Below are positions 12,475-30,508 of a stretch of DNA of 32,847 nucleotides, piece after piece. The position numbers and the translations under genes were made by a program. Position 1 is the stretch's first letter, and each line of letters opens with the position of its first letter. This DNA comes from Blastopirellula marina (GTDB lineage Bacteria > Planctomycetota > Planctomycetia > Pirellulales > Thermoguttaceae): positions 1 to 32,847 of the forward strand of contig DYLT01000015.1 in NCBI GenBank assembly GCA_020721945.1, in the 5' to 3' direction. The notes under the pieces are model-generated. The model worked only from the letters and a program-made list of their open reading frames with translations, did not search any database and had not been told where the DNA came from.

Positions 12475-12503
12475 AGCAGACTCTCGGGTTCTGGGTCCTG
12501 CGG

Positions 12504-15500: not shown

Positions 15501-16064
15501 GTACAGCTCCTTGACATCGCGCTGGTCCTGGGCGGTCGACAGGGTCACCTCGTCGCGTTGGGTCTGGGCCAACTCGGGAAGGCCCTGCGTGAGCTTGAGC
15601 ACCTTGCGCTGCGACTCGATGATCTGGCGCACCTGCGCCGCCATCTCGGCCATGCGGAGGCGCCGCAAGAGATTCTGCCGCTCGATCAGAAGCTGGATGA
15701 GCACCTCGCGGCTTTTCTGGCGGGCGGCCACGAAGGTCGTCGAGCGGGTGTCGCCCGCCTCGGCCTGCAACCTCCTCAGCAGTTCGACAACCCGGGGCAT
15801 TTCGGCCTCGATCAGCTTGTCGAGGTTCGCCCGCATCGACCGCAACTCGCGGTAGAGGTCGCCTTTCTCCATGCCGTTCTCTTCGAGTTGCCGGATTTGG
15901 AGATCGACGATGCCGGTGACGAGTTCGCGGGCCATCGCCCGCACGCGCTGTTGCTTTTCCTGTTTGTCGAGGATGCTCGCGCGTTGGAGGGTTTGAGCCG
16001 GGGCCGCCACGGCGGCAACGAGCCAGAGGACCGCTCCGAGCATCCTTGGGCGCCGCGTCGTCAT
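12504..16064 (-). CDS. Giant Ala/Gln/Glu-rich coiled-coil protein, exported
   Basis: An 1186-residue protein with a signal-like N-terminus (RMLGAVLWLVAAVAAPAQT). Residues ~28-270 are ordinary helical sequence (QQRVRAMARELVTGIVDLQI and similar). Residues ~270-1080 are almost continuous low-complexity helix made of Ala, Gln, Glu, Lys and Arg, interrupted by a Pro/Lys/Glu-rich stretch in the middle (SDEKPAAKEEGKPEEKPGSP). A conserved-looking tail follows: LPPELRRAIRANSQRRPPRG, then YEEKLERYFKNID. The start ATG 16064 follows GGGGGAAT and overlaps the stop of the DUF4175-like gene (ATGA); the open frame extends far upstream, but only as a shadow. It resembles the C-terminal coiled-coil half of DUF4175-type proteins made as a separate polypeptide. 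It probably forms a long periplasmic rod or scaffold; this is inference from composition and context. Confidence 0.85.
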   Translation of the reverse strand: MTTRRPRMLGAVLWLVAAVAAPAQTLQRASILDKQEKQQRVRAMARELVTGIVDLQIRQLEENGMEKGDLYRELRSMRANLDKLIEAEMPRVVELLRRLQAEAGDTRSTTFVAARQKSREVLIQLLIERQNLLRRLRMAEMAAQVRQIIESQRKVLKLTQGLPELAQTQRDEVTLSTAQDQRDVKELYLRLKDLLEEVAGWGGPVGAEATKGMEILASRRVDDALDASVRNLEQTRFADAVTNQDAVIKALLELLQAIERAQGLLTPESSRESVEERIRELAQEQKNVRAETQRADLSQPDPSKQLAQEQSAIEQQLEELARAAENVPEAHATLEQAEEAAGQAAEKIFEGKQADAVERQNQVVDRLEQAAQQVRDAAPQALADAPQDLDKTIRDLEAARKDLEKIQKDQARASQAAEPKPQEAKPMEAQIAEELAKVSENRDLPAPVDAAIEQAEHAAEHAARQMDRPEAADRRHAAENVEQAIERAIAEIREALADLTRRQMAEQIAPMAQAAAMLEQAAAQERAIAQASHEAAQQSGLQADEARQLGEDQAGTRQTAEQAAKRIDKAAPQAAALVQEAGPSMQRVADQFEAAEKQPGERSKQAAAEAAEQAAAAADKLAQAAAALREAAGRSAQQLADETTRQRQAAHEAQQAVENAIANRPEPLGQRLERLAEAARKVEEAQAEQARAAGHPEAAEAMQLAAGIRRALQMQNAADQAAEAAARNQPGARTAEAVAKQDEVAQAAADLAQLAAGSPARQEASRTEKEAAGQVDPKPESDEKPAAKEEGKPEEKPGSPEKSEAKPEQGGGDPNPVADVLRRAEQSAREASKDMLGDKQDEARHARAETRQALEEALQLAQAQVQKANERPAGPRDMGAQERAGQAIAQAEQLAQPDAPKAAQTLGEAAKTSEAAQEHGQKGNQEAAGQAQEATARSLDQAAEELAQAMNQLAQEAAKQLAAQAQQADRLAHQSMPVDAGATAALQQAENQANQGAEEPRGTPAAEQGVGEAMNQAAAELSQREQQLAREQALARRLGAMAAQPDAGDAMAQLAEQMAGELGPDIAAEAGQDQAAAMVPASKPGEQPSDQGSPSGTGGMARAGEKVTNQPAPPAPAKPNAQTPQGDSRTADAANLEPQGAMRQGREEPWHAELPPELRRAIRANSQRRPPRGYEEKLERYFKNID

Positions 16065-17791
16065 TGGGATTCCCCCACGCTGATCTGGGTTTGGATCATG
16101 GTATCGACCTGGCGGAGCGATTCGCGTTCCTGTTCGGCCATCGCCGCCAGCACGCCCTGTTCGTCGGTCACCTGAAAGACCATCGGGTCGCTGAGGGCCG
16201 ACCTGCCGCGTTCGGGGTCGCCGCGGAAGTCGATCGCCCGAAGCGTCACCTTGACCTGGTCGCCCTTGACAGCCCCCAGCGGCGCGAGGTGGAGCACGAA
16301 CTTCGCTTCGTGCTCGTCCGGCTTGGGAAGGCTCTTCGGCGGCATGTCGCCAGGGCGAAGTTCGAAGACCGTGATTTCGGGTTTTTCCTCCTCGCGCCCG
16401 TCGGCATGGAGGATCTCCGGAATCAACGAGATCTTCGCCAGGCCGTAGTCGTCGGAGGCCGCATACCGGATCGTCGGCCGTGCCGTCGGCACGACATAGT
16501 GGGTGACGATCGAGGCGGTGACCTGCGGCGGATGGTCGGTCTTGATACGCACGACCCCTTCGATGGGCCGCTCGAGTTGCAGGCCGTCGATGTCGGTTAC
16601 CTGAAGGACGTAGCGCACCGGCTCGACCACGTGGGCCAAGGGGAAGGGGTTCTGAGGTTTTTCCGTGGCGGACGTCTGGTACAGCTCGTCGGGAAGCCCC
16701 CACTCGTCCCTGCCGCCTTCCGGCTTCGGGCCGTGCCGGCACAGGGCAAACGACCGGACGTCGATCGCCAGGGTGGCTTCGTGAAGCTCCTTGTCGGAAA
16801 ACACCCGAAGGCCCACCCGCGAGTTCTCGATCACCGAGATTTGCCGCAGGTCCTTGAACACCTCGGGGGCAGAGCCCGCGTACCCGGGCGGCGAGACTTC
16901 CAACTGCACATCGACGGTGGGCCGGGGCACCAGCTCGATGCGGACCGGCTCGGTCCAGGCGTCGCCGAGGTAGAGCAGGCACTCGGCCGAATCGACCAGG
17001 CGCGCCAGTTCGCCGCGGTACACGGCCGACTCGTCGCTGGCGCGTTCGAGGGGCACCAAGGCCGCCAGGCCGTGCTCGCCCTTGAGCCGGGCCGAGCCCG
17101 AGGCCGGAAGGGTTCCCGCGCAGCGCACCTCGAAGCGCACGGGCTGGCCATAGGGGCACTTGACCCTGGTCGCACCCCAGGCCAGGTCGAGTTCGTGGCC
17201 GTTGATTCTGGCCGTCTCGATCGTCGTGGCGGTCGGATAGTGTGCCGCGCCGAGCAGGAGGCGGTTGAAGAAAACCGCCACGTGCTGCGGGAAGACCGCC
17301 GCCAACACGCCCAGCACCAAACAGGTAGCGGCCAGCAGGCCCACGCGGCGTTTCAGGGGCGTTTCGGGCACTTCGGCCTGGGGTTCGACCTGGGCCACGG
17401 TTTGCGCGGTCTCGTCGATGACCGCCTGCTCGAGTTGGACGGAGCCCCAGCGCGGGGCCTCGGGCGATTCGAACTCCAGGGCGGCGATCACGTCGGTGTC
17501 GATGTGCCGCTGGCGCTCGATCAAGAGGGCCATGTCGAGATCGTCCTCCGCGTGCCCCAGCCAGGGAGCGGTCACCCGGCGACAGGCCCACCCCACGACG
17601 CCGGCGGCGAGGACCGCCAGGACGATCCGCTCCGGCTTGCCCATGCGCAGGCTCCAGTCGGCCGCGAACAGCACGGCGAGTACCCACAGGACCACCAGCG
17701 TCAGCCCACTGTAGGCGATGACCCAGCGGGCCAGCCTTCGGCGGCGGCGGAGTCGGACCAGGCGGCGGCGGAGTTGTGAGAGTCTCGTCAT
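16061..17791 (-). CDS. DUF4175-like membrane protein (N-terminal half type)
   Basis: A 576-residue membrane protein. A very basic N-terminus (RRRLVRLRRRRRLAR) precedes two adjacent membrane helices (about 24-46 and 54-72). A ~75-residue soluble loop with MALLIERQRHIDTDVIAALE leads to a third helix (about 149-167). The remaining ~400 residues should lie outside the membrane and contain several Ig-like beta segments. This helix pattern and the recurrent VQLEVSPPGYAG-type phrase resemble the N-terminal half of DUF4175 proteins, whose C-terminal coiled coil is here encoded by the next gene. ATG 17791 overlaps the stop of the upstream vWA gene by four bases (ATGA), and its own stop overlaps the downstream start in the same way. 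The family name is my best match, not verified by profile search. Confidence 0.8.
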   Translation of the reverse strand: MTRLSQLRRRLVRLRRRRRLARWVIAYSGLTLVVLWVLAVLFAADWSLRMGKPERIVLAVLAAGVVGWACRRVTAPWLGHAEDDLDMALLIERQRHIDTDVIAALEFESPEAPRWGSVQLEQAVIDETAQTVAQVEPQAEVPETPLKRRVGLLAATCLVLGVLAAVFPQHVAVFFNRLLLGAAHYPTATTIETARINGHELDLAWGATRVKCPYGQPVRFEVRCAGTLPASGSARLKGEHGLAALVPLERASDESAVYRGELARLVDSAECLLYLGDAWTEPVRIELVPRPTVDVQLEVSPPGYAGSAPEVFKDLRQISVIENSRVGLRVFSDKELHEATLAIDVRSFALCRHGPKPEGGRDEWGLPDELYQTSATEKPQNPFPLAHVVEPVRYVLQVTDIDGLQLERPIEGVVRIKTDHPPQVTASIVTHYVVPTARPTIRYAASDDYGLAKISLIPEILHADGREEEKPEITVFELRPGDMPPKSLPKPDEHEAKFVLHLAPLGAVKGDQVKVTLRAIDFRGDPERGRSALSDPMVFQVTDEQGVLAAMAEQERESLRQVDTMIQTQISVGESQ

Positions 17792-20223
17792 GGCAGATTC
17801 ACCCACTTGCGTCCCAGCCACTCGCCCAGCATCAAGACGGCCACCAGGGCGAACGCGAACCAGGTGTTCCAGAGCGGAATGACCTCGACATCGGTTTCGG
17901 TCCTGGCCACGAGTCGAATTTCGTCGGCCAGGCGCGCGGCGCTGGCCAGGTCGTAGCTCTTGCCCCCGGTGGCGTCGGCCAGGGCCTGCTGGAGCGCGGC
18001 GTTGCGCACCGCGGTTTGCCGCTCGACGGACACGCTGGCCACGCGGAACGTCGTCTCGACGTGCTCCTGGGCGATCGGATCGTGTACGCGCACCCGGTAC
18101 TCGCCGCCCATGAGGACGGGAAATCGGGCCTCGAACACGCCGTCGCGAAGCTGTGTGACGGCCAGCGCGCGGCGACCTGGCTGGTCCGAGGCGCCAAGAG
18201 GAGGCACGATCAGTTCGGCGGCCAGCTTCCGGCCAGGAAGCCGCGACTCGGCCAGCGGCTTGTAGTTCTCGTCGTAGGCCTCGACGGTCAACAGGACCTG
18301 GTCGTTGGCCTGGTACTGCGGCCGGTCGGTCCGCACGACGAACCGCTTGCCGGCCCCCAGCGCGTGGCGCGAGGCCAGGCGGTGGATCAACTGGCCCCAG
18401 AACTGCCGGTAGTAACGCTCGCCCTGAGCCCGGCGGAGCCGCCACATCTCGTTGAAACCGAGGTACACCACTTCGCCCCGGCCGTAGCTGCGCACGGCGA
18501 TCAACGGTTGCGGGGTCTTGCCGTCGACGCACGTGTCGGTGGGGTGTTCGGCCAGGGCCGTGGCCACCGAGTGCAAGCGTTCGACGGGCTGGTACCAGGT
18601 CAGGCCGACCAGATTCGCCCAGGCGCGATCGTTTTCGGCGCCCGGCGACTCGATCTGCATGAAGTCGTATTGCGCGGCCTCGGGGGTGCGGCGGAGCCCA
18701 AAGGGCACCGGGCGGTCGCGCACGTGGAGGTTGGGATCGACCTTGACCGGCAGCATGTCGCCCAGGGGCGTCAAGGCCAACTGCCCGGGGCCGAACCGCG
18801 GCCCAGACACCACGACCAATCCCCCGCCGAGCTTATCGACGAACTCCTCCGTCATCTGGCAGAACCGGGGGCTCAGGGCCGAGGCCGGCATGTCGCCCAA
18901 GATGATCACGTCGTGCAGGAAGAACTCGTGGCGCGGCGGGCTGAGCGTCGGGACGAACAGCTCGTTGGTCTGCCGGACCTTGGGGTCGGCCGAACGGAGG
19001 AAGGTGCGGAACCCCTTCTCGCCGACCAGCTTGTCGCGGTGGAAGACCTCCTTGACGAACCGCCACTCCCACGACGGCTCATAGTCGACGTACAACAGCC
19101 GGATCACATGGTCGTGGACGATCGTCTCGCACTCGGCCTGGTTGTTCTGCGAGACGACTTCTTCCGAGAACGGCTCGACCTCGGCACGGAACGCGAAGCA
19201 CCCGGTTTCCTTGGGGACGTGGGGCACTTCGACGACGTGGGTGCCCTCGGCGAGCGTCACGTCACGCTGGTCGAATTCGCGCCACCGCGCGGCCTCGGCG
19301 GCGCCGCCGATCTGCCGGGCCGAGAACCGCACCGTGACCGTCCGGCCTGCAAGCCCCTCCTGCCGCAAGGTGACCAGAAGCGGATAGCGCTCGTCTTTCT
19401 TCATCGACGGGGGACATTGGAGGTCCACGGCGAGGTCGACGGCCGCCAGCGGACCCACCCCCACGGTGTAGATGCTTGCGCCCAGGCGACGCGCGGCCTC
19501 GACGGCTGGCGGCCCGGCGTTCTGGTTGAAATCGCTGAAGACCACCACGCCCGCCAGGTTGCTCGTCGCTTGACGCCGCGCGAGGTCGCCGAGCGCGGCC
19601 CCGACCGCGGTCACCTGGCCGGCGGTGGTCCATTGGGCCACCAGCGCCTTGGGGTCGAGCGCGTCGGTGCCGTCGGGCGACAAATCGAGCGAACGCACGC
19701 CGTCGGGCCGGTCGAAAACGAACGCCCGTAACCGGAACTTCTCCCGCAATTTCTGGAGGAGGTTATCCTCGTCGCGGGCAAGGAAGGCCTGAACATGCTC
19801 GACCCGCGTGGGGCGCGCCGACGGGCCGGCGGCGAGCCCGGTCGCCTCGGCCAGTTGCGCCCGGTCCGCCTCCGACAGTTCGTCGGCGATGCCCATGCTG
19901 TCGGTGCCGTCGAAGACCAGCCACAGCGCGGGTTTAAGCTGGCTGGTCACGCGCACCGTCAGCACGGGTTCGGCGAGGATGACCAGGACGAGGCTCAAGA
20001 GCACGGCCCGAACCACGGCCAAGGCCATGCGCGCCTTGGCCCGGCGCGCGTACTGGTAGCGGGTGTAGAACAGCACCGCCAGGACGGCGAGGCCCAGGCA
20101 CCCGAGGACCAGCCAGGCCGGGGCGTCGTGCGCCCACGGGGCCGAAAGCGACGGTTCCACGCCGCCGATCTCGGCGGTCCGTTCCAGCCCCAGCAGGCGG
20201 CCGATCAGTTCCATGAGATTCAT
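17788..20223 (-). CDS. vWA membrane protein with class-I amidotransferase-like domain
   Basis: An 811-residue inner-membrane protein. Two N-terminal membrane helices lie at about 36-53 and 67-87, then a vWA domain with the MIDAS variant FDGTDSMG (D105, T107, S109) and VVVFSDFNQN. Ig-like segments follow. A domain around 360-560 (RLLYVDYEPSWEWRFVKEVF, DVIILGDMPASAL, GGGLVVVSGPRFGPG) has the class-I glutamine-amidotransferase-like fold, without an evident catalytic Cys. More beta domains end in a C-terminal membrane helix (WFAFALVAVLMLGEWLG). Such proteins accompany BatA-type partners in Planctomycetota and Bacteroidota. The start ATG 20223 overlaps the previous stop as ATGA; a second ATG four codons on is possible. 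The periplasm-facing vWA domain is probably a protein-interaction module that works with the MoxR ATPase of the same operon. Confidence 0.88.
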   Translation of the reverse strand: MNLMELIGRLLGLERTAEIGGVEPSLSAPWAHDAPAWLVLGCLGLAVLAVLFYTRYQYARRAKARMALAVVRAVLLSLVLVILAEPVLTVRVTSQLKPALWLVFDGTDSMGIADELSEADRAQLAEATGLAAGPSARPTRVEHVQAFLARDEDNLLQKLREKFRLRAFVFDRPDGVRSLDLSPDGTDALDPKALVAQWTTAGQVTAVGAALGDLARRQATSNLAGVVVFSDFNQNAGPPAVEAARRLGASIYTVGVGPLAAVDLAVDLQCPPSMKKDERYPLLVTLRQEGLAGRTVTVRFSARQIGGAAEAARWREFDQRDVTLAEGTHVVEVPHVPKETGCFAFRAEVEPFSEEVVSQNNQAECETIVHDHVIRLLYVDYEPSWEWRFVKEVFHRDKLVGEKGFRTFLRSADPKVRQTNELFVPTLSPPRHEFFLHDVIILGDMPASALSPRFCQMTEEFVDKLGGGLVVVSGPRFGPGQLALTPLGDMLPVKVDPNLHVRDRPVPFGLRRTPEAAQYDFMQIESPGAENDRAWANLVGLTWYQPVERLHSVATALAEHPTDTCVDGKTPQPLIAVRSYGRGEVVYLGFNEMWRLRRAQGERYYRQFWGQLIHRLASRHALGAGKRFVVRTDRPQYQANDQVLLTVEAYDENYKPLAESRLPGRKLAAELIVPPLGASDQPGRRALAVTQLRDGVFEARFPVLMGGEYRVRVHDPIAQEHVETTFRVASVSVERQTAVRNAALQQALADATGGKSYDLASAARLADEIRLVARTETDVEVIPLWNTWFAFALVAVLMLGEWLGRKWVNLP

Positions 20224-22700
20224 GCGGTCCGCTCCCGAGCCAGCATCGGCCAGGCCAGCATCCCCAGTTCCGCGAGAAGGCCGGCAAGTACCGCCAACAT
20301 CAGCCATTTCCAAAGGTCTTGCCCCAGCATCGGCGCGCCGGCCAACTGGAGGGTCTCGCCTTGAGCCACCCAGCGATAGTCGGCCGAGGCCATGCGCTCC
20401 TGAAGATCGACCTGGTCGAGCGTTTTGAGGTCCGACTCGTCGGCCGGGCCGTTGACGGCCAGGATGGTTTCGAACAGCTTGGCGCCCTCGGCGGCCTGCG
20501 GGGTCTGGGCGGTTGCATGCGCCGCGAGGCGGTAGATGCCGCGCTCGGCTGCGGGCGCCAGGCGCACGCCATAACGGTCGCCCCCGAGGGCATCGACCGG
20601 CACCGGCTCGTCGCGGCCATGCGGGCCGGAAAGCGTGAAGCGGGCGTCGCGGAAATCGGCGGGCACGGGCACGACCAGTTCGCGGTGCGAATCGATGGTG
20701 CGCAGCGGCAGCGTTCCCAAAATCAAATCGCGGAACACGCGGTCGAACAGCAACGCGGCATTCGTGGCCGTCAAGGTGTTCCACTCGCGGAACACCCCCG
20801 TGGTGAAAAACAGCACCCGCCCCCGGCCGATGCGCCGCTCGACGAGAAACGGCAGGCCGTTGGTGTAGCGGCCCAAGACGCGAGGTCGCTCGCGCCGGGC
20901 GAGTTCCTCGGGAGAGGCCTGGGTGTCTTCCAGGACGTTCTCCCGCGAGGCCGCCCAGGCAAGCCACGCGGGCACCAGGGCGTCGCGCTCCTGCTGAAGC
21001 CGGATCCGCTCCTGGTGCTCCCCATCGCTGGCGGCACCCTTGGCTTCCAGCGCGGCCAGACGCTTGTCGAGCTGGGCCAGGCGGTCGCGGTCGTTGGCGA
21101 TCCGCTTGGCGACGTTGGCCACGAGGCCGTCGGCCACGTCCTGGCTCCAATCCACCTCGACCGCCTTGAAGAAGAACGGCAAGCGGTAAAGCTCCTCGAG
21201 TTCCTCCCGGGGCGTCTGCTCCAGAAGGAAGTAGTCGTGCACCAGGGTCGAGAAGTCGAGCTGGAAGGGCTTGTAGCGGCCCGAGGAGGTCCCGGGGATG
21301 CCGCCCACCGGGACCGGCTTCAAAGGCGCGGGAAGCACGCCCAGGCCGTCTTGCCAGGCCGCGGTCGTCCACGCCTGGGCATCGAACGCGCCGCCGCAAG
21401 CCAGCACCAGCGGGCCGCCCTGTTGGACATACTCGCGCAACGCGTCGATTTCCGTCTGCGGCTTGGCGACTCCCGCGATCACCACGAGCCGGGCCTCCTT
21501 GAGCAGCTCGCGATCGATGCGGTCGATGCGCACGTGGCGCACCTGGACCAATTGCTTGTCGCCCTGGTTCCGCGCGGTCACCGGCGCCACCAGGCGCCGC
21601 AGGCGGAACGTCTCGCCGAACCGGCCGCGCGGCGGCGATTCCTCGGGCCCCAGCGCATCGGCGAACACCACCGGCAGCGACGCCACGACCGGCGCGGCCA
21701 GGAACCGCTCGTCGTCGGCCGGGAGCCGGTCGCGCGGCAGCGCGACGGAGACCGGCACGAACGTCGGGCGGCCGGGCTCGACCGGCACGTTGAACTGGTA
21801 GGGCGGAAATCGCACCTCGCGCGTCTGGCCGGGCTGCAAGTCGATCGTCTGCGTGGCCACGGTCACGCCATCGACATTCAGCGCCACCTGCACCTCGTTT
21901 CGCGGCGCGGCCCCTTCGAACCGGAGGGTCGCCAGGAACGTGGCGGGGGTCTCGAGGTCCGCGATCTCGTCCTGGAGCCTCAGGTCGGCCACCCAGGCGT
22001 TCTCGACCTCCTCTTCCCTCGGCGCCGTCTGCACCACGTTCAAAGGCGCGGGAAGCCGCCGAAGCTGCGCCTCCAGCGACTGCGCCGGCCAGTTGCCCGC
22101 CTGCTGGTCCGAGAAGAAGTAGATCTGCTTGGCCGGTGGGCTTTTCACCCGGTCGCATGCCTCGCGTGCCAGGTCGATCGCGGCGGAGACCGCGGCGGCT
22201 CGGTCCACGGGTTCGAGCGATCGGAGGGCGTCGAGGGCATCGGCGGGCGTGCTGTACGCGCCGCGGTTGAACTCGCGCGCCGCGCCGCAGGCCGGCAGCA
22301 CGGACATGCGACTCCCCGGCGGCAGGCGGCGGAGGAACTCCTCCGCCCGCGATTTCGCCTGGTCGAGCACGGTGCCGCCGAGCTGCTGGTAGCTCATGCT
22401 GAGGCTGTTGTCGACGACGAGCACGGCGTGGACGGGCTGGTCGGGGTCGATGGCCCCCGACCCGGGCAGAAAGGGCCGGGCCATGGCCAGACCGAACAGA
22501 AGCACCACGGCGGTGCGCAGCGCCAGGAGGATCAGGTCTTGAAGCCGCATCATGCGGCGGCTGCGGCGCACCGCATGGCGGAGGAAGTCCATCGCCGCCC
22601 AAGGCACCACCCGAAATCGCTGGCGGTTGAGCAAGTGAATCGCGATCGGCCCGGCCGCCAGCACGAGGCCAGCCAGGGCGAACCAGGGCGACAGAAACAT
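20220..22700 (-). CDS. BatA-type vWA membrane protein
   Basis: An 826-residue protein with the BatA N-terminal double-membrane domain (residues 1-77: FLSPWFALAGLVLAAGPIAI, then the LLNRQRFRVVPWAAMDFLR signature, then helix LILLALRTAVVLLFGLAMAR). A vWA domain follows with a full MIDAS motif DNSLSMS (D97, S99, S101). Beyond it lie Ig-like segments, an amidotransferase-like segment (LVVIAGVAKPQTEIDALREY, then a Gly-rich turn) and a final membrane helix (WLMLAVLAGLLAELGMLAWP). A short coiled-coil patch lies around 560-610. ATG 22700 is preceded by GAAGAGG at good spacing, only one base after the upstream stop. Its last bases overlap the next gene. An 18-base stretch encoding the LPAPL region is repeated at about 21318 and 22038. 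Role by analogy with Bat proteins: periplasmic or membrane assembly factor. Confidence 0.93.
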   Translation of the reverse strand: MFLSPWFALAGLVLAAGPIAIHLLNRQRFRVVPWAAMDFLRHAVRRSRRMMRLQDLILLALRTAVVLLFGLAMARPFLPGSGAIDPDQPVHAVLVVDNSLSMSYQQLGGTVLDQAKSRAEEFLRRLPPGSRMSVLPACGAAREFNRGAYSTPADALDALRSLEPVDRAAAVSAAIDLAREACDRVKSPPAKQIYFFSDQQAGNWPAQSLEAQLRRLPAPLNVVQTAPREEEVENAWVADLRLQDEIADLETPATFLATLRFEGAAPRNEVQVALNVDGVTVATQTIDLQPGQTREVRFPPYQFNVPVEPGRPTFVPVSVALPRDRLPADDERFLAAPVVASLPVVFADALGPEESPPRGRFGETFRLRRLVAPVTARNQGDKQLVQVRHVRIDRIDRELLKEARLVVIAGVAKPQTEIDALREYVQQGGPLVLACGGAFDAQAWTTAAWQDGLGVLPAPLKPVPVGGIPGTSSGRYKPFQLDFSTLVHDYFLLEQTPREELEELYRLPFFFKAVEVDWSQDVADGLVANVAKRIANDRDRLAQLDKRLAALEAKGAASDGEHQERIRLQQERDALVPAWLAWAASRENVLEDTQASPEELARRERPRVLGRYTNGLPFLVERRIGRGRVLFFTTGVFREWNTLTATNAALLFDRVFRDLILGTLPLRTIDSHRELVVPVPADFRDARFTLSGPHGRDEPVPVDALGGDRYGVRLAPAAERGIYRLAAHATAQTPQAAEGAKLFETILAVNGPADESDLKTLDQVDLQERMASADYRWVAQGETLQLAGAPMLGQDLWKWLMLAVLAGLLAELGMLAWPMLARERTA

Positions 22701-22701
22701 T

Positions 22702-23907
22702 TTACCTCTTCTCCTTCACGCCGTACCTCGCGCGCAGGCTGTCGATCCGGCCTTCCTGGAGGATGGGCAGGTAGCGGTTGGGGATCGCCAGCACGAAGCA
22801 GCACACCGCCGTCTGGTACAGTTCGCCGGGGCGCCCGCTGACGTGCCCCTGGGCGTTCCACACGCCGTCGCGTTCCGAGCCCGGCTCCTGCACCTGGCTG
22901 GCGGCGACCCCATCGCGGAGCTTGGGGTAGCCCGTACGCCAGGGGTCGCCGCCCACCTGGTACAAGGCCTGGGCGACATACCAGAGCGTATAGGCATCGA
23001 ACGGGGCGCGGCGTTGGCGGGCGAGTTGCTCGGGCCGGTGCTTGTCGATCTCTTCCAGCAGGATCGTGATGTTCTTCTCGATGCGCCAGTCGTCGTACTG
23101 GGCGAACTCCTGGAGGCAGACCACGCCCGCCGCCGCCATCGCCGTCGTGGCGTTGCCTCCGCCCTTGGAGTAAGTGAACCGGCCGGGATGCTTCTTCTGC
23201 TCTTCTTCCGAAGCGTTGCGGTCGCAGCCCTGGGGCGTGTAATGTTCGCGCACGCTCTTGATGGCCAGTTCGACGGTTTCGGGCGGGACCTCGAGGCCGC
23301 TATCGACCGCGCTGCGCAGGGCCAGGGCCTGCATGACCGCCAGGCTGAGATCGTGCCCGTGCTGCTGCCGCTGCGCGAGGTAGTCCCAACCGCCGTCGTC
23401 GCACTGGGTCTGGCAGATGATCTTCAGCGCGCGGTCCAGGACCGGGCCGAGGCGAGGGTCGTTGCTCATGCCGTACAGTTGGCCCAGCGCGAAGGTCGCC
23501 AGGCCGTGATTGTACATGCCGCGCCGCGGCTCGGAGATGTTCAACAAGCCGAACGGCTTGCCCGAAATACGGGCGGCACCGCGCCGGGCGCCGGCGGGGG
23601 CATCGGCATTGCGAAGGATATAGTCCATCGCGCGTTGGACGTTTTCGCCGTACCGCCCGCGGCCAGGCAAGTGCCCCGCCGACATGAAGGCCAGCATGCC
23701 CGTGCCCACCAGCCCCAAATCGTTCGATTGCCAGTTGCCCTCGGGACCTTGGTTGCGGGCGAGCCACTGGAGGCCGCGGGCCAGCGCCTGCTCGCTTTGC
23801 GGGGTGATTTCCCAGTCGCCTTGGGCCCACGCGGGGGCAGCGATGCCGGCGACCATGCACACCACGGCGATGCCGATCGCCACGCTGCCGAGGGAGGTTG
23901 GTTTCAT
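22702..23907 (-). CDS. Secreted alpha/alpha-toroid (prenyltransferase / squalene cyclase fold) protein
   Basis: A 401-residue exported protein, signal peptide about 1-28 (VAIGIAVVCMVAGIAAPAWA). The mature part consists of repeated helix pairs with QW-like turns: GLQWLARNQGPEGNWQ, QTQCDDGGWDYLAQ, GRFTYSKGGGNATTAM and a C-terminal ELYQTAVCCFVLAIPNRYLP. This is the terpenoid-cyclase / protein-prenyltransferase toroid, the same fold as the thioester domain of alpha-2-macroglobulins. I see no DxDD cyclase motif and no CxEQ thioester, so neither enzymatic function is supported. ATG 23907 follows AGG and gives the signal peptide; the longer frame up to 24045 adds an Arg/Ser-rich leader and is rejected. 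It is the first gene of the vWA/MoxR block, one base ahead of the BatA gene. Similar proteins are abundant in planctomycetes with unknown function. Confidence 0.85.
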   Translation of the reverse strand: MKPTSLGSVAIGIAVVCMVAGIAAPAWAQGDWEITPQSEQALARGLQWLARNQGPEGNWQSNDLGLVGTGMLAFMSAGHLPGRGRYGENVQRAMDYILRNADAPAGARRGAARISGKPFGLLNISEPRRGMYNHGLATFALGQLYGMSNDPRLGPVLDRALKIICQTQCDDGGWDYLAQRQQHGHDLSLAVMQALALRSAVDSGLEVPPETVELAIKSVREHYTPQGCDRNASEEEQKKHPGRFTYSKGGGNATTAMAAAGVVCLQEFAQYDDWRIEKNITILLEEIDKHRPEQLARQRRAPFDAYTLWYVAQALYQVGGDPWRTGYPKLRDGVAASQVQEPGSERDGVWNAQGHVSGRPGELYQTAVCCFVLAIPNRYLPILQEGRIDSLRARYGVKEKR

Positions 23908-24099
23908 CCTGGACGGTCCGTTGGAGGGACGATGCAAGGCGTGTCGCTGCTTGCGCATCGAGCGGTGGCCGCTAGACGTACCTCGGGAAGCCGGCGTCGC
24001 GCTAACAGCGCCGCGCCGCCGGCCGGATCGCCGAAGGCCAGCCATCCACCTTCAACACCCAACCACCACCCGATTCGGACCTCTTGCGAGTGTCCACCC

Positions 24100-24322: not shown

Positions 24323-27300
24323 TCAGTCGCCCACGCGCAGCTTGATCTCGTCCGAGTTGGCCTTCAGCTCCGGGGCGTACATGGCCCACGCCTTGGTGGG
24401 CAGCGCGCTGAACATGCCGGGAATCTCGGCCCTCATGCGGTAGGCGACGCTGTGGTTGCCCCGCGCCAGGCGCTGGACGAAGAACACCACGCGGTTGTCG
24501 CGAAACTCCATGTAGGCCCCCAGGGCATTCCCCGTGTACCCGCTTTGCAGGTCCACCGGCTCGAAGCCCGCGGGCTTCATGTCCTCGAAGACCAGGTACT
24601 CGTAGTCGTTCTTGCTTTGGATCTCCAGCTCGATCTCGACGAGTTCTCCGCTCTTGAGTTCCGCGAGGTTCTTCAGTTCCTCGCGCTCGTAGCGTTCGAC
24701 CTTCTGGTCGACGACCTGGCCCCGCGAGCCGGCCGCCTGGACCGCCTTGTCGGCCTTCTTGAGGCGGTAGTACTTGCGATCGACCTTGACCTCCAGGCCC
24801 GCCTTGGCGATCGGGTCTTCGAGGGTGAAGTTCGTCAGGTAGGCGTTATAGTAGAGTGGACCCGTGCCTTTCTTGCGGAGTTCGATCGTGTGCGGGCCGT
24901 CGGTCACGGCCGCGCCCTCCAAAACAAACTGGTTGTCGAAGCTGAAGAGCACTGCCGGCGTGATCTCGACCGCCTTCTGGAGCTTGCCGTCGTAGAAGAC
25001 CTCGACGGTCAATTCGGGCTTCTCTTCGCCGCTGGCCCGCAGGAATTCGGCGAATGCCTCGATCACGATCGCCGTATCACGGGTCGATTTCCAGTACGTG
25101 GCGTGCTTGCGGTTGTTCAACAGGTACTTGACCAGGCGCCGGGCCGTCTCGCCCTTGGGATCGGTGCGGGCCAAGAGCTTCAGGTAATACGCCTGGGCCT
25201 CGTACTCGCTGCCGTACCACCACCACCAGATGCCCTCGGGCAGATTGAGCCAGGCGGTCTGATTCTCGTCGTCCTGCTGGAGGTACTGGCCGATGTTGCG
25301 CAGGATCATGTCGAGCTTCGCCTTGTCGCCGAGGCGCTCGACGGCCAGGCCGTACATGGCCATCGCGTAGACCGACAGATCGAGGCGGTCGCGGTAGAGG
25401 AACTCGTGCATGTCGGGGTTCTTCACGCCCGCGTCGACCAGCACCATGTACACGAAGGCGTCGAGATTGTCGGCCGACGACTTCCATCGCAGTCCTGGCG
25501 GCTTGTCTTTGATCGCCGCGTTCTTCAGCAGCACGACCTGCTCGTCCTGATAGCGTACCAGCCATTGGAGCCCGCGTTCCAGCACGCCGGGCACGAGGGC
25601 CACGTCGTTCTGTTGGGCAAGCTGGAGGCCGTGGACGACCAGCGCCGTGGTGTGGGCCGAGGGATGTTCGCCGAAGCCCGAGAACCAGCCCCAGCCGCCG
25701 TCGGAAAGCTGCATTTCCGTCAGCCGCGCCACGCCGTCCTTGACCATGCGGCGGACCTCGTCTTCGTCGAAGACGGGGTTCCGGTCGAGCCTCTTCCACT
25801 GCGCCGCGCGCTGGCGGTCGTCGCCGATCTCCTGGGCGTTGAGGTTCGTGCGCTTCTTCTGGATCTCCTGGAGATCCAGTCCCATGCGGAGGAGCACCTT
25901 TTGGGTGATCACCGTGGGCAGGAAGCGGTTGAGCGTCTGTTCGGTACACCCATAGGGATAATCGACCAGGTAGGGCAAGGCATCGACCATCGCCCCGGCC
26001 AGGGTCGGCGAATAACGGACCTCGATCCGCGTCTGCGCGGGCCGGCGCTCCGTGGGCACGGTGACCGCGAGCTTGCCGGAATCGCGGTCGGGCCGGATCA
26101 CGCCGGACCAGGCCTCCATCTTGAGCATCCCGTGGAGGTGGCACGGGAACTTCTGTTCCATCGCGTCCGACTCTTCGTCGGTCAGCGCCTTCATGCGCAC
26201 CGTGGCCTCGCCCTCGTCGAGCACCCGCACGCGCCAATCGACGCGGGCCTCTTCACCAGCCGCGATCTTCACGGTGCGAACCAGGTGGTCCAGGGGCTGG
26301 AGGGTCTTGCCCTCCAGCTCCAAGGCGACTTGGACGCGCTTCTCGGCCTTGAGGTAGTTGTGGACGTTGGCCGAAAGCACGACCTCGTCTTTCTGCACGA
26401 AGAACCGCGGGGCCTGGAGGCGGATGATGAGGTCCTTGCGCGTCAGGACGTCGGTCACTCCCTCGCCGACCTTGGTGCCGTGGCCCATGCCCCAGACCTT
26501 GATGCGCCAGGTGGTGAGGTTTTCGGGCATCGAGAGCGCCACCTCGGCCGTGCCGTCCTTGCCGGTCGCGAGGGCCCCGACCCAGAGGGCCGTGTCGGCG
26601 AACTGCTTGCGCACGGTCGGCTGGACGAGCGGGGCGCCGGGGGCGGCGTCGGCCTTGTGGCCCAGCCCCCCGTCGGTCTCCGCGGCGGCGTCGCGCAGGG
26701 CCATGGACGCCGCCGGGGCTTCCAGCCTCTCGCGGGCGGGGACGGCGAACGAGTCGATTCCGTTGGCCATCCCCGGGGCCGACTTGAAGGCCCGCCCCAT
26801 CGCCCCGCCGAACCCCGCGGCGCCCATGCCACCCGCCAAGCCCCGGCGAAACTCCCCCTTGGCCTGCTCCACCGTATTGAGATCGTCAGCCGAACTGGCC
26901 CCAAACACCCCGATGTCGGCCATGGGCTTGGCATGGGGTGGAACCGTCGGACCCGTCAAACGCTCGAGGCTCGATTCGGTCTGCGGGTGGTGATGCCGCC
27001 GCCACTTCCAGAAGAACGCCTTGATCTCCGGCACGTTCGTGCCGCCCGAAATGTACTCGACCGACTTGTCGTAGATCGCCACGACGGTCGAGCCCTCGAA
27101 AGGCTGGCCGTCGAAGTCGGTCAGCTTGAGTTTCACCTGGGCCTTCTGCCCGGGCCGGTATGCCGTGGCGGACGGCTGGACTTCGACGTTCAGCACCCGT
27201 TTCTCCGGCGGCACGGCGATCTCCTTGACCTCGGTGTGGACCCGGCCGTCGGCGATCGTGACCGCCTCGACGAAGAAATTGGGCATATCGCGTTTGACCA

Positions 27301-30300
27301 CGGCGATCTCGGCCACCGTGCTCTTGCCCTCCAGGCGGATCGGCTTGGGTGGCAAGTACACGCCGCTGGGGCGCACGAAAAGCATGACCGTGCCGTCGGC
27401 GCGGTCGCGGTTGATCAACAGTCGCACGGTCTGGCCGGGCTGGTACTCGCGCTGGTCGGGGATCAGCTCGATCGCGTTGTAGCGGAACTCGTCACGGCCG
27501 GTCGCCTGGCCCAGGATGGTAAACACATAGCCCCCCTCGATCGTGTGGCCCTTCGCATCGGTCAATTGGTACGACAGGCGGAACTGGCCCGGTCCGGCCG
27601 CCCGAATCTGCTGTTGGGCCAAGCCCTCTTCGTTCGTCGAAAGGTCCAGGGCGAAGCCCTGCTTCTCGACCGGCTTGCCCTCTTGGTAGGCGACTCGATA
27701 CAGCGTGAGCTTGCCTTGGCCTTGCACTGGCTTGCCGTCGAGCGTGCGCGCGGCAAAGTGCGCGTGAATCGTGTCGCCCACGCGGTAATAGCCCCGGTCG
27801 ACCCAGGCGGTTACCGTGAACGGCTTGCGGGCCACCAGCACGTTGCCTGCGCCCACGATCGTGCGCCGCGATCGATCGACCACCTCGGCCGTGATCGCGT
27901 ACTGATGGTCGCGGTCGGGATACAGGGCCTTGGCCACGCCCGTGTCGATCTCGACTTTCACCGTCCCGTCGGGGCCGATCTCGACCTCGCGGTCGGCGAC
28001 CACCTCGGGCGGTCGATGCGCCCGCGGATACCAGAACGGCATCGGACGCCGCCAGCCCCAGTCCTTCCACCCCGGATACCACGGCATGTCGTACGCGAAC
28101 CACCAGTAGCCCGGCCCGTAGAACCAGTCCCACGGCGCCCAGGGGTACCACGGGTCGCTCACGTCGGTGCGGGTAACCTTGTACTTCACCTTGGCCTTGG
28201 TGACTGGCGAGCCGAAGTAGTATTTCGCCTGGATCGTGGCCGTGATCTTCTCGCCGAGCATGACGGGCTCCTTGGGAGCCTCGACGGTGACTTCGTACTC
28301 GGGTTTCTTGTACTCCTCGACGCGGAAGCCGCCTCCCCCAAGGTTGGCGATCGAGAGGCTATACGCGCCCAGCATCGCGTCGGCCGGCAACTCGTACTTG
28401 CCCTCAATACCGCCATAGGCATCGGCCTTCGCCTGCGTCTCGACCATCTTCTCGCCCTTGGGATTCTGCACAAGCACCGTGAACGTCTGGCCGGCAAAGT
28501 CCGAGGTGTCTTCCTGATCGTACTTGGCGTGCCGCACCCAGAACTTGTAATGAACCGTCTGGGCGGGCCGGTAGACCGGCCGGTCGGTGATCGTAAAGAC
28601 CTTGACCTGATGGTACTCGGGGTCATGGTGCCGGCCGTACCATACGCCGGTAAACCCCAAATAGGCGAATCGGCCCTGGGGCGTGCGCGCGATGACCAGC
28701 CATTGATAGTCCTGGGGCTGGTCGTTGGGGTTGGGCATCACCTGCCCGTCGGCATCGCTCCACTCGGCGAACTGCTTGGTGAGGATCTCGATCCGGTTCG
28801 GGGCCCGGTGCTCTTGTTTCCAGCCGAAGAACTCGACGTTGGCCCTGGGCACGGGCTTGCCCGTGACCGCGTCGGCAACGAAGTACCAAGTCTTCCCGTC
28901 GAGCGGCTTCTTGGCGATCGCCGTGTCGGCGACCCAGACCACGAGGTGCATCGTGTTGCCGCCGTCCATCTTCGCGGTCACCAGATAGGCCCCCGGCTTC
29001 TGGAGCGGCGTGGTCACGGTGACGCGCCGGTCGAAGTGGTTCTCCCGCGGCTGGAGGTCGAGTTTCCACGAGGCCACCTGCCCGATCACATACCGCCGCT
29101 GGTTCCTGTGCACCAAGCGCCAGCCCAAATCGCCGAGATTCACCTGATCCCAGTCCAGTTGTCTGGGGCGCGACTTGATATGCGTCTTGAGATCGTCGAG
29201 GAGCTTGGGGACATCGATCTCCTCGGCGGTGAACTCGACCTGCTTGCCGTTGCGGTAGCGGAACTCGAGGGTCGCCCCCTGCCCGGCCGGCTGCGTGTTC
29301 GTGGGCTCGAAGCGTCCCCAGTTGCCCGTGATCTGCTCGAGCCGCTCGCGGAACGACCGCTTCTGGTTCGCGTCGCTGGCGGCCTCGATGGCCTGCCGCC
29401 AGTAGTCGGCCGCCTTGGGGTACTGCCGCCGGTTCTCGAAAATCTGTGCCAGATGCACCAGCGCGTCGGTTCGGTAATGGTCTTTCGCCTCGGCGGCCAC
29501 CTGCTGGTAGACGCGGATGAAGTTGAACTCGTCGGGCAGATCGAATCGTTGGATGCCCGTGGCCAGCCGGGCGATGGTCTCGGTCTCTCGGAGCGTGTGC
29601 AGGGCGTACCTGCCGCCTTGGTCCTTCGTGTCGTCGGTGTCCATGCGGCCGAAAAGCCAGCCGTAGTAGGCCATGGTCTGAACGCCGAACTGGTTGTGGA
29701 GGAAATCGGCGAACTGCATGCGCACCGGGGTAAGCTGGCTCGGATCGGCCTCGGCCGCCTGGACCAGGCACCAGCGCCACCGCTGGCCGTCGCTGGTGGC
29801 GTCCGCCCAGCGCTTGGGAACGCGATGGTAGACCGGCTTGCCGTCCTCATCGACCGGGGCGCCGCGGACCTCGCCACGATAGTAGCCCCAGCCGGGTTCG
29901 TAGTCGGGCAGCGTGCCAAGGTCGGTCAGGTACTGAAGTCGCCACGACTCCTGATAACCGCGGTAGTTCAAGAGCATCTGGCCCAACTCGAGGTAAAACC
30001 GACCAACGGCCCCGCGGTCGGCATCCTGGTGCGCCAAGGGCATGGCCTGAACCATCAGTTGGAGCGCCCGCACCCGGTCGCGCTCCACGGCATGGGCCAC
30101 CTGGCCGCCGCCACGGTGGGGTCCACGCTCGAACTTCCCGGCAATGATGAACCCTTGGTGCGGCATCTGCATATAGTTGCGGGCCGCCGCCCACAAGAGC
30201 CGCCAGTTCGCTTGGTGCACGTCGATCACCGCCTCGCGCAAGGCGTCGATTTCATGGACCCGGTTCAGCCTCTGGAGGCATTGCGTCGCCAGATGAAGGT

Positions 30301-30508
30301 CGTCGCCGACCCGTTGCGGGTCGCTCTTGGCATCCAACGCGAGTTTGCGGAACAACGCGTAGGCATCCTTGAAGTTGCCCTGTTGCATGGTCCTTCGCGC
30401 TTGCTCCCGCAGGACGTGATCGCCTCCCGACTCGTCGGCTTGGACCGTGGTCATGCCAAGTACCATCCCCAAAAAAGGAACCATCAGGATCGATCGCCAT
30501 GCGCGCAT
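24323..30508 (-). CDS. Alpha-2-macroglobulin-like protein with intact thioester motif
   Basis: A 2061-residue exported protease-trap protein. Signal peptide about 1-24. Residues ~30-420 are helical, TPR-like. Macroglobulin beta domains follow: TDRPVYRPAQTVHYKF (~640, MG2-type), YYRVGDTIHAHF (~905), EYQPGQTVRLLI (~1030) and AYRPGQKAQVKL (~1115). A Gly/Ala-rich flexible linker (~1168-1297) precedes the A2M domain (~1305-1395, SMPENLTTWRIKVWGMG). The thioester domain starts with YPYGCTEQ (C1521, E1523, Q1524; Cys codon 25946-25948) and runs to ~1800; C-terminal beta domains end the protein. An inserted Trp/Tyr-rich patch lies at 787-827. ATG 30508 has AGGAG seven bases upstream. Bacterial relatives (YfhM type) defend the periplasm against foreign proteases, usually beside pbpC; no pbpC is present here. 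The first cysteine, normally lipidated in E. coli YfhM, is absent, so it is probably soluble. Confidence 0.95.
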   Translation of the reverse strand: MRAWRSILMVPFLGMVLGMTTVQADESGGDHVLREQARRTMQQGNFKDAYALFRKLALDAKSDPQRVGDDLHLATQCLQRLNRVHEIDALREAVIDVHQANWRLLWAAARNYMQMPHQGFIIAGKFERGPHRGGGQVAHAVERDRVRALQLMVQAMPLAHQDADRGAVGRFYLELGQMLLNYRGYQESWRLQYLTDLGTLPDYEPGWGYYRGEVRGAPVDEDGKPVYHRVPKRWADATSDGQRWRWCLVQAAEADPSQLTPVRMQFADFLHNQFGVQTMAYYGWLFGRMDTDDTKDQGGRYALHTLRETETIARLATGIQRFDLPDEFNFIRVYQQVAAEAKDHYRTDALVHLAQIFENRRQYPKAADYWRQAIEAASDANQKRSFRERLEQITGNWGRFEPTNTQPAGQGATLEFRYRNGKQVEFTAEEIDVPKLLDDLKTHIKSRPRQLDWDQVNLGDLGWRLVHRNQRRYVIGQVASWKLDLQPRENHFDRRVTVTTPLQKPGAYLVTAKMDGGNTMHLVVWVADTAIAKKPLDGKTWYFVADAVTGKPVPRANVEFFGWKQEHRAPNRIEILTKQFAEWSDADGQVMPNPNDQPQDYQWLVIARTPQGRFAYLGFTGVWYGRHHDPEYHQVKVFTITDRPVYRPAQTVHYKFWVRHAKYDQEDTSDFAGQTFTVLVQNPKGEKMVETQAKADAYGGIEGKYELPADAMLGAYSLSIANLGGGGFRVEEYKKPEYEVTVEAPKEPVMLGEKITATIQAKYYFGSPVTKAKVKYKVTRTDVSDPWYPWAPWDWFYGPGYWWFAYDMPWYPGWKDWGWRRPMPFWYPRAHRPPEVVADREVEIGPDGTVKVEIDTGVAKALYPDRDHQYAITAEVVDRSRRTIVGAGNVLVARKPFTVTAWVDRGYYRVGDTIHAHFAARTLDGKPVQGQGKLTLYRVAYQEGKPVEKQGFALDLSTNEEGLAQQQIRAAGPGQFRLSYQLTDAKGHTIEGGYVFTILGQATGRDEFRYNAIELIPDQREYQPGQTVRLLINRDRADGTVMLFVRPSGVYLPPKPIRLEGKSTVAEIAVVKRDMPNFFVEAVTIADGRVHTEVKEIAVPPEKRVLNVEVQPSATAYRPGQKAQVKLKLTDFDGQPFEGSTVVAIYDKSVEYISGGTNVPEIKAFFWKWRRHHHPQTESSLERLTGPTVPPHAKPMADIGVFGASSADDLNTVEQAKGEFRRGLAGGMGAAGFGGAMGRAFKSAPGMANGIDSFAVPARERLEAPAASMALRDAAAETDGGLGHKADAAPGAPLVQPTVRKQFADTALWVGALATGKDGTAEVALSMPENLTTWRIKVWGMGHGTKVGEGVTDVLTRKDLIIRLQAPRFFVQKDEVVLSANVHNYLKAEKRVQVALELEGKTLQPLDHLVRTVKIAAGEEARVDWRVRVLDEGEATVRMKALTDEESDAMEQKFPCHLHGMLKMEAWSGVIRPDRDSGKLAVTVPTERRPAQTRIEVRYSPTLAGAMVDALPYLVDYPYGCTEQTLNRFLPTVITQKVLLRMGLDLQEIQKKRTNLNAQEIGDDRQRAAQWKRLDRNPVFDEDEVRRMVKDGVARLTEMQLSDGGWGWFSGFGEHPSAHTTALVVHGLQLAQQNDVALVPGVLERGLQWLVRYQDEQVVLLKNAAIKDKPPGLRWKSSADNLDAFVYMVLVDAGVKNPDMHEFLYRDRLDLSVYAMAMYGLAVERLGDKAKLDMILRNIGQYLQQDDENQTAWLNLPEGIWWWWYGSEYEAQAYYLKLLARTDPKGETARRLVKYLLNNRKHATYWKSTRDTAIVIEAFAEFLRASGEEKPELTVEVFYDGKLQKAVEITPAVLFSFDNQFVLEGAAVTDGPHTIELRKKGTGPLYYNAYLTNFTLEDPIAKAGLEVKVDRKYYRLKKADKAVQAAGSRGQVVDQKVERYEREELKNLAELKSGELVEIELEIQSKNDYEYLVFEDMKPAGFEPVDLQSGYTGNALGAYMEFRDNRVVFFVQRLARGNHSVAYRMRAEIPGMFSALPTKAWAMYAPELKANSDEIKLRVGD

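What the first reader, a model, noticed from the sequence alone, without database searches (positions are those of the whole stretch)
28028..28156. Tryptophan/tyrosine-rich insertion in the macroglobulin
Residues 787-827 of the macroglobulin contain 11 Trp and 6 Tyr in 41 positions, with Pro, Gly and few charges, between two macroglobulin beta strands (KYKVTRTDVSDP before and HRPPEVVADREVEIGPDGTV after). The flanks are ordinary macroglobulin sequence, so it reads as an inserted loop. Such an aromatic loop could bind glycans, insert in a membrane, or bind a partner protein.
Basis: seen in the sequence. Interest (0 to 1): 0.55.

Follow-up and report, generated by a model that had tools for sequence, protein, structure and literature searches.

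The report
Tryptophan-rich loop in a protease trap
A bacterial protease-trapping protein carries a 55-residue loop packed with tryptophan and tyrosine that is kept across a large family of these proteins in planctomycetes and some relatives, which suggests a real working part whose job is still untested.

Summary
Residues 787-827 of a 2061-residue bacterial alpha-2-macroglobulin (A2M; gene 30508..24323, minus strand) hold 11 Trp and 6 Tyr in 41 positions; 2000 shuffles never exceeded 12. The stretch is the C-D loop of domain MG3, residues 781-835. It is not a variable low-complexity loop: six Trp plus D794, G800, Y801, P812, P822, P834 and E835 are the same in 60 of 60 aligned orthologs. Most related A2Ms read have a shorter, often aromatic loop there; seven paralogs have almost none. 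The long form makes up nearly one branch of the tree. The loop profile matches 55 of 294 genomes of the window's phylum and 35 of 240 of the phylum of a Verrucomicrobia-labelled genome, mostly in A2M-sized frames. In human A2M the same loop (267-289) bridges subunits through Cys278; in human A2ML1 it is proposed to help hold the prey protease. My best reading is an ordered aromatic lobe on the MG3 wall of the prey chamber, opposite the thioester domain. A subunit interface and a membrane or glycan contact remain open. New variant of a known kind; no function was shown.

The parts
24323..30508 (-). A2M gene, 2061 aa, N-terminal signal-like segment without lipobox cysteine (first Cys is residue 77)
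   Evidence: ORF; Pfam MG2, MG3, A2M_BRD, A2M, TED_complement, bMG10; Cys positions
28349..28603 (-). MG2 domain, residues 636-720
   Evidence: Pfam PF01835, E 8e-26
27824..28315 (-). MG3 domain, residues about 732-895, split by the loop
   Evidence: Pfam PF17791 matches residues 732-773, profile 1-43 of 84, stopping before the loop; model strands; right boundary from the model, approximate
28004..28168 (-). MG3 C-D loop, residues 781-835 (55 aa), the inserted aromatic element
   Evidence: Alignment of 115 homologs between R780 and V836; counts by length class
28028..28150 (-). Residues 787-827, the Trp/Tyr-rich core named in the finding
28109..28132 (-). Residues 793-800 WDWFYGPG, the most widely kept motif; short helix 792-795 in the larger model
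   Evidence: D794, W795, Y797, G798, G800 in 17 of 17 diverged orthologs, 16 of which were found with the loop profile; helix
28052..28054 (-). Residue 819: Trp here, Cys in 55 of 60 aligned orthologs
27059..27472 (-). Bait region domain, residues 1013-1150
   Evidence: Pfam PF07703; the variable, low-confidence stretch 1209-1302 that follows is the likely bait
25043..25984 (-). Thioester domain, residues 1509-1822, motif GCTEQ at 1520-1524
   Evidence: Pfam PF07678; sequence and motif alignment

Best explanation
The element is an expanded, ordered aromatic lobe built from the C-D loop of domain MG3 in a thioester-type bacterial A2M. SHOWN: its place, its length conservation, its invariant aromatic, Gly and Pro positions, and that the protein has the other recognisable parts of a covalent protease trap. 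INFERRED: in A2ML1 the prey is thought to be held between the thioester domain on one side and MG3 plus MG4 on the other. The lobe packs on neighbouring domains of the macroglobulin ring and forms part of that wall. It would shape the chamber and hold the prey after the bait is cut, until the thioester has captured it.
For: Present in all 60 orthologs aligned across it, with six Trp the same in 60 of 60. Against a congener the 41 codons carry 0 replacement and 1 silent change, while the rest of the 55-codon loop carries 6 replacements. In those 60 no invariant Trp is swapped for Phe or Tyr, which suits specific packing. Same place as the A2ML1 loop Thr264-Gly274, proposed to help hold the protease in a cavity walled by TE on one side and MG3 plus MG4 on the other (passages of PMC9156758; mapping). 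Mean model confidence over 790-809 is 44-54 in MG2-MG4 alone and 60-70 when MG1 and the domains up to residue 1420 are present, as expected if it packs on the ring. CxEQ thioester in 54 of 56 orthologs read at both places. No conserved neighbour gene seen, so a role inside the molecule is economical.
Against: No coordinates were available, so facing the cavity is not shown. Confidence of the lobe stays moderate (block means 60-83) and the two models differ in alignment depth too (33 and 29 rows). Averaged over its positions the loop is no more conserved than its MG3 flanks (mean entropy 1.19 against 0.81 and 1.00; window 787-827 ranks 549 of 2020). In 17 diverged orthologs the second half erodes and W787 is Trp in only 8 and Tyr in 6. 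Two orthologs without CxEQ, L012 and L024, keep the loop, so it is not strictly tied to covalent capture. The E. coli loop at this place, aligned by eye, has no Trp, so aromatic residues are not a general need of the trap.
Confidence: 0.42

Rival explanations
1. Subunit interface. The loop reaches into a second A2M molecule and holds a dimer, as the same loop does in human A2M; in most orthologs Cys819 could seal it with a disulfide.
For: Human A2M residues 267-289 of MG3 stretch across subunits and Cys278 bonds Cys431 of the neighbour's MG4 (passages of PMC8167298 and PMC13069473); the family profile aligns to human residue 271 at about P0001 residue 781. Cys is at 819 in 55 of 60 orthologs. 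It does not go with Cys77: 10 of 52 rows with C819 lack C77, and 5 of 6 rows without C819 keep C77.
Against: The window protein, its congener and L049 have Trp at 819. No column between 819 and 1338 holds Cys in six or more rows, so the human MG3-MG4 bridge is not copied. E. coli and Salmonella A2M are monomeric as far as I recall (not from a call).
Confidence: 0.25
2. Surface contact: the exposed aromatic lobe binds membrane, peptidoglycan or another glycan and places the trap, replacing the lipid anchor of E. coli A2M.
For: No lipobox cysteine in P0001.
Against: Invariant W/D/G/P positions and near-constant length look like a fold, not a greasy patch. No carbohydrate- or cell-wall-binding family matches.
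Confidence: 0.17
3. Purely structural: the loop stabilises MG3 or the MG2-MG3 channel through which the bait's C-terminal part is threaded, with no contact to prey or partner.
For: In native A2M-family proteins the channel is formed by MG2, MG3, their linker and the LNK region, and the paper supports its emptying and collapse as the trigger (passages of PMC9352918). R780 and E835 at the loop base are kept in 77 of 77 long loops.
Against: Seven paralogs and TEP1 keep an MG3 with only a short loop; 55 residues is costly for local stability.
Confidence: 0.16

Closest known systems
Human alpha-2-macroglobulin MG3 loop 267-289
   Same: Same place in MG3; long loop extending from the domain; carries a cysteine, as 55 of 60 orthologs here do.
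   Different: Not Trp-rich as far as I recall (its letters were not read here). Its Cys278 pairs with Cys431 of the neighbour's MG4, and no Cys is conserved in the corresponding part here. The window protein has no Cys in the loop.
Human A2ML1 MG3 loop Thr264-Gly274
   Same: Same place, on the cavity wall of a monomeric thioester A2M.
   Different: The named stretch is much shorter and, by the paper, dynamic; here 55 residues with invariant aromatic positions.
E. coli YfhM (type I bacterial A2M; structures 5a42, 4ziq)
   Same: Fold of the modelled part (Z 22.8, rmsd 8.2 over 622 residues for 5a42; Z 24.2, rmsd 7.7 over 677 for 4ziq); thioester A2M; an arginine stands before the loop (by eye).
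   Different: Loop has no Trp (by eye); lipoprotein next to pbpC. The window protein has no lipobox Cys and neither direct neighbour is a PBP.
Related planctomycete A2Ms with 31-48 residue loops
   Same: Aromatic loop with [WYF]DW[FLYC][YF] core in 22 of 29; CxEQ thioester in 14 of 14 checked.
   Different: Most lack the second half GYWWFAYDYxWYPGWxxWGCxRPxPxWW, the part that makes the window clade's loop Trp-rich. Two of the 29 are shortened members of the long-loop branch.

Membership tests
Alpha-2-macroglobulin family (thioester, type I bacterial) | MG2, bait region domain, A2M, thioester and bMG10 domains in order | tested here: met
   All above Pfam's curated cut-offs
Alpha-2-macroglobulin family (thioester, type I bacterial) | CxEQ thioester motif | tested here: met
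   GCTEQ at 1520-1524
Alpha-2-macroglobulin family (thioester, type I bacterial) | Flexible, variable bait | tested here: inconclusive
   Residues 1209-1302 have pLDDT under 50 and 1151-1305 is the most variable of the segments listed; cleavage not testable
Alpha-2-macroglobulin family (thioester, type I bacterial) | Neighbouring PBP1c gene (in a number of bacteria, not defining; passage of PMC5764988) | tested here: not met
   Neither direct neighbour is a PBP; no PBP among the eight frames scanned, some of which may not be true genes
Alpha-2-macroglobulin family (thioester, type I bacterial) | Protease trapping | not testable with these tools
   Needs protein
Human A2M-type disulfide-linked dimer | Cysteine in the MG3 loop and a partner cysteine in MG4 | tested here: not met
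   W819 here; Cys in 55 of 60 orthologs; no column from 820 to 1337 with Cys in six or more rows
Carbohydrate- or cell-wall-binding modules | Match to such a profile in the loop | tested here: not met
   35 loop sequences against Pfam at E up to 5: only one match, an astrovirus family at 0.6, taken as chance
Aromatic MG3-loop A2M subfamily (named in this report) | R, then 51-66 residues containing DWx[YF][GENS]xG and ending in E | tested here: met
   77 of 77 long loops, the window's among them; the definition was drawn from the same set

The most novel reading that the evidence does not exclude
Planctomycetes and their relatives have a distinct A2M subfamily in which the MG3 loop has become a rigid aromatic grip that is a working part of the protease trap. 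It may also be the dimer contact, sealed by Cys819 in most members and by Trp stacking in the window's genus. These traps would then hold prey with a geometry unlike E. coli, insect or human A2Ms.
Probability: 0.22. Interest if true: 0.52.

Novelty: new variant of a known kind. Interest (0 to 1): 0.38.

Why it matters
The solved bacterial A2Ms that these searches returned are from E. coli and Salmonella, and the E. coli loop at this place has no Trp. A large family from planctomycetes and relatives, with a conserved aromatic lobe exactly where human A2M joins subunits and A2ML1 is thought to hold prey, gives a clear test of how such traps keep hold of a protease. It also offers a sequence signature for naming the subfamily.

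Tried and rejected
Low-complexity or variable loop: rejected; 58 of 77 long loops are exactly 55 residues, and 13 positions within the loop are the same in 60 of 60 orthologs. Frame or assembly artefact: rejected; in frame, one match in the genome, conserved elsewhere. Separate mobile module found in other proteins: not supported. Loop-profile matches lie mostly in frames of about 1800-2500 codons, with shorter ones that look like gene fragments; the clear exception, an 87-codon frame at E 8e-4, is probably chance. I confirmed six of these loci as A2M with the MG2-MG4 profile, besides those aligned, not the rest. Sampling bias: one of the six peptide patterns comes from the loop, and one search used the loop itself. 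I therefore repeated the phylum search with the C-terminal 772 residues only. Of 48 genomes whose best listed match there was at least 45% identical (counted by hand, own genome included), 47 also have the loop match; the miss, G108, is a 927-codon frame. Below that identity the loops I read were mostly shorter.

Cys819 paired with Cys77: not supported by the table. The Trp patch in the thioester domain (1761-1764) as a special partner of the loop: rejected, a similar patch occurs in members with shorter loops. Neighbour genes as a partner: outside the congener only one weak match (L007), and no neighbour family in more than five of 36 loci (one an ABC-transporter-like frame in five, another antisense frames). 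Loci from the genome search carry only short flanks, so this rests mainly on the genome-contig loci. The VIA rows show the A2M fold only and say nothing about the loop. Weak PDB matches of the loop (a retroviral receptor-binding domain at E 0.14, antibody heavy chains) are taken as chance. Searches of papers for such a loop; none of the titles or abstract starts listed describes it. Several listings were capped (25 of 34, 12 of 23, 25 of 5,207, 12 of 205), and the library lacks most subscription papers. Of the papers cited I saw passages only.

Script errors: the codon comparison lost its anchor and is void, redone. One search picked antisense frames for about half of the 20 loci and is replaced. 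The motif search missed L079, which does have CxEQ (GCNEQ); one search corrects this. Twenty of 135 frames were dropped before the loop counts (listed): eight short-loop paralogs, six loci and six partial or split frames.

Full report
WHAT IS THERE. The gene at 30508..24323 (minus strand) encodes a 2061-residue A2M. Pfam finds MG2, MG3, bait region domain, A2M, thioester domain and bMG10 above their cut-offs, with GCTEQ at 1520-1524. Residues 787-827 contain 11 Trp, 6 Tyr, 3 Phe, 7 Pro and 4 Gly. The maximum W+Y in any 41-residue window of 2000 shuffled proteins was 12, against 17 here. The Pfam MG3 match covers residues 732-773 and 43 of 84 profile positions, breaking off just before this stretch. 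Both AlphaFold2 models have strands at 772-783 and 835-843 with no strand between. The stretch is therefore the C-D loop of MG3.

CONSERVATION. From (35 loci; 30 loci, the window's own included, from 99 genomes) I extracted homologous frames. I aligned them as 63 rows, thinned to 62 for the entropy figures. Sixty rows span the place and all have the loop. R780, W787, D794, W795, G800, Y801, W803, W810, P812, W817, P822, W826, P834 and E835 are the same in 60 of 60; W793 in 58 of 60; Cys at 819 in 55 of 60. Taken over all its positions the loop is not exceptional: mean entropy 1.19 against 0.81 and 1.00 in the two MG3 flanks and 1.35 for the whole protein; window 787-827 ranks 549 of 2020. The signal lies in the fixed aromatic, Gly and Pro positions and in the length. 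Against the congener the 41 codons show no replacement and one silent change, while the rest of the loop (781-786 and 828-835) shows six replacements.

WIDER SERIES. I collected more distant relatives in two ways: by the loop profile (55 of 294 genomes of the phylum, the window's own among them) and, to avoid bias, by the C-terminal 772 residues alone (203 of 294). I read the loop in chosen members of both sets, 18 regions of the first and 32 of the second. Of 135 frames 115 covered MG2-MG4 well enough to align (the 20 dropped are listed). Loop lengths: 51-66 in 77 rows (58 exactly 55), 31-48 in 29, 15 and 25 in two rows from plasmids of Parabacteroides and Deinococcus, and 3-8 in 7 paralogs. 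The core [WYF]DW[FLYC][YF] is in 77 of 77 long and 22 of 29 middle loops; the arginine before the loop is in 77 of 77, 28 of 29, 2 of 2 and 0 of 7. Eight paralogs at about 23% identity have a short loop, mostly of the form RFPPWWYWCFWWRP (not in the 115). A tree of 75 of the 115 rows (every third of 60 typical rows, and all 55 others) was built without the loop columns. In it the long class needs three changes: it lies in one branch of 39 rows, 37 long and two shortened (support 92, not starred). So the window's loop looks like a lineage-wide extension of an older aromatic loop, not a fresh insertion; the root is not inferred, so the direction is my reading. In 17 diverged orthologs D794, W795, Y797, G798, G800 and E835 are kept 17 of 17 while the second half erodes. 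Sixteen of those 17 were found with the loop profile, so this figure is biased towards the motif.

SPREAD. The loop profile also matches 35 of 240 genomes of the phylum of the genome that holds L006 (record title: Verrucomicrobia bacterium). It matches only 2 of 198 of the phylum of the genome that holds L023 (title: Desulfobacteraceae). Both counts include the genome itself. Some of the 35 are weak (E up to 8e-4). Six of these loci were confirmed as A2M. A Lentisphaerae-labelled sequence sits inside the planctomycete tree. Transfer or mis-binning cannot be told apart here.

STRUCTURE. For MG2-MG4 alone (residues 620-1010, 33 rows) mean pLDDT is 83.9. The loop blocks 780-789 to 830-839 read 71, 44, 54, 82, 64, 84. 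For residues 400-1420 (29 rows; mean 79.0, pTM 0.71) the same blocks read 78, 60, 70, 83, 67, 81, with short helices at 792-795 and 814-817. The first half of the lobe is thus better defined when the rest of the ring is present. That is suggestive of packing on the ring and no more, as no coordinates were held. The fold matches listed are A2M and complement family members.

COMPARISON WITH KNOWN A2Ms. The MG2-MG4 profile aligns to human A2M up to residue 271 at profile position 162, about P0001 residue 781, and to human A2ML1 up to chain index 250 (about residue 268) at position 170 (offset). The loop there in human A2M, 267-289, stretches across subunits to form the Cys278-Cys431 bond (passages of PMC8167298 and PMC13069473). 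[quoted passage not shown] In E. coli the MG5 and MG6 domains form one of the two arms said to entrap the protease, and human MG2 corresponds to bacterial MG4 (passages of PMC4498604), so human MG3 would be MG5; that last step is my inference. E. coli's own loop there, aligned by eye, has no Trp.

CYSTEINE 819. Cys is present at 819 in 55 of 60 orthologs. It is absent in the window protein, its congener and L049 (Trp), L016 (Ser) and L024 (Thr). Neither Cys77 nor the thioester Cys varies with it in a way that suggests a bond. A lone conserved cysteine in a protein with a signal-like start leaves room for a bond between molecules.

THIOESTER. Of 56 orthologs read at both places 54 have CxEQ; L012 and L024 do not, yet keep the loop. 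In the shorter-loop grade 14 of 14 checked have it.

VERDICT. Confirmed observation, real conserved element, function inferred. I favour an aromatic lobe that forms part of the trap's inner wall (0.42), then a subunit contact (0.25), a surface contact with membrane or glycan (0.17) and local structure only (0.16).

Noticed in passing
L004 and L045 (congener), residues about 662-667 of P0001: In the sister genome of the same genus the A2M is read in two frames that meet near residue 662-667; either a frameshift or an assembly error.
   Followed up: no
L012, L024, L030 (thioester position): Three of 57 members read there have lost the CxEQ motif (GTTDE or DTTDT); L012 and L024 keep the aromatic loop, L030 is not read across it. 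Possible non-covalent traps in this subfamily.
   Followed up: partly
window 11437-24045: Downstream of the A2M lie a weakly squalene-cyclase-like frame, a BatA/VWA protein, a DUF7408-like frame and a MoxR ATPase. Most of this string was found again only in the congener; MoxR was not found in any flank.
   Followed up: partly
window 25214-25228 (residues 1761-1765): A second aromatic patch, WWWWY, in the thioester domain; Trp-rich also in members with shorter loops.
   Followed up: partly
L014, L023, L029, L028, L006: Copies in MAGs labelled Lentisphaerae, Desulfobacteraceae, Deltaproteobacteria, Kiritimatiellia and Verrucomicrobia; L014 sits inside the planctomycete tree; transfer or mis-binning.
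   Followed up: partly
L066-L070, L075, L076, L083: A second A2M family in the same order has its own short Trp-rich loop in MG3, mostly of the form RFPPWWYWCFWWRP.
   Followed up: no
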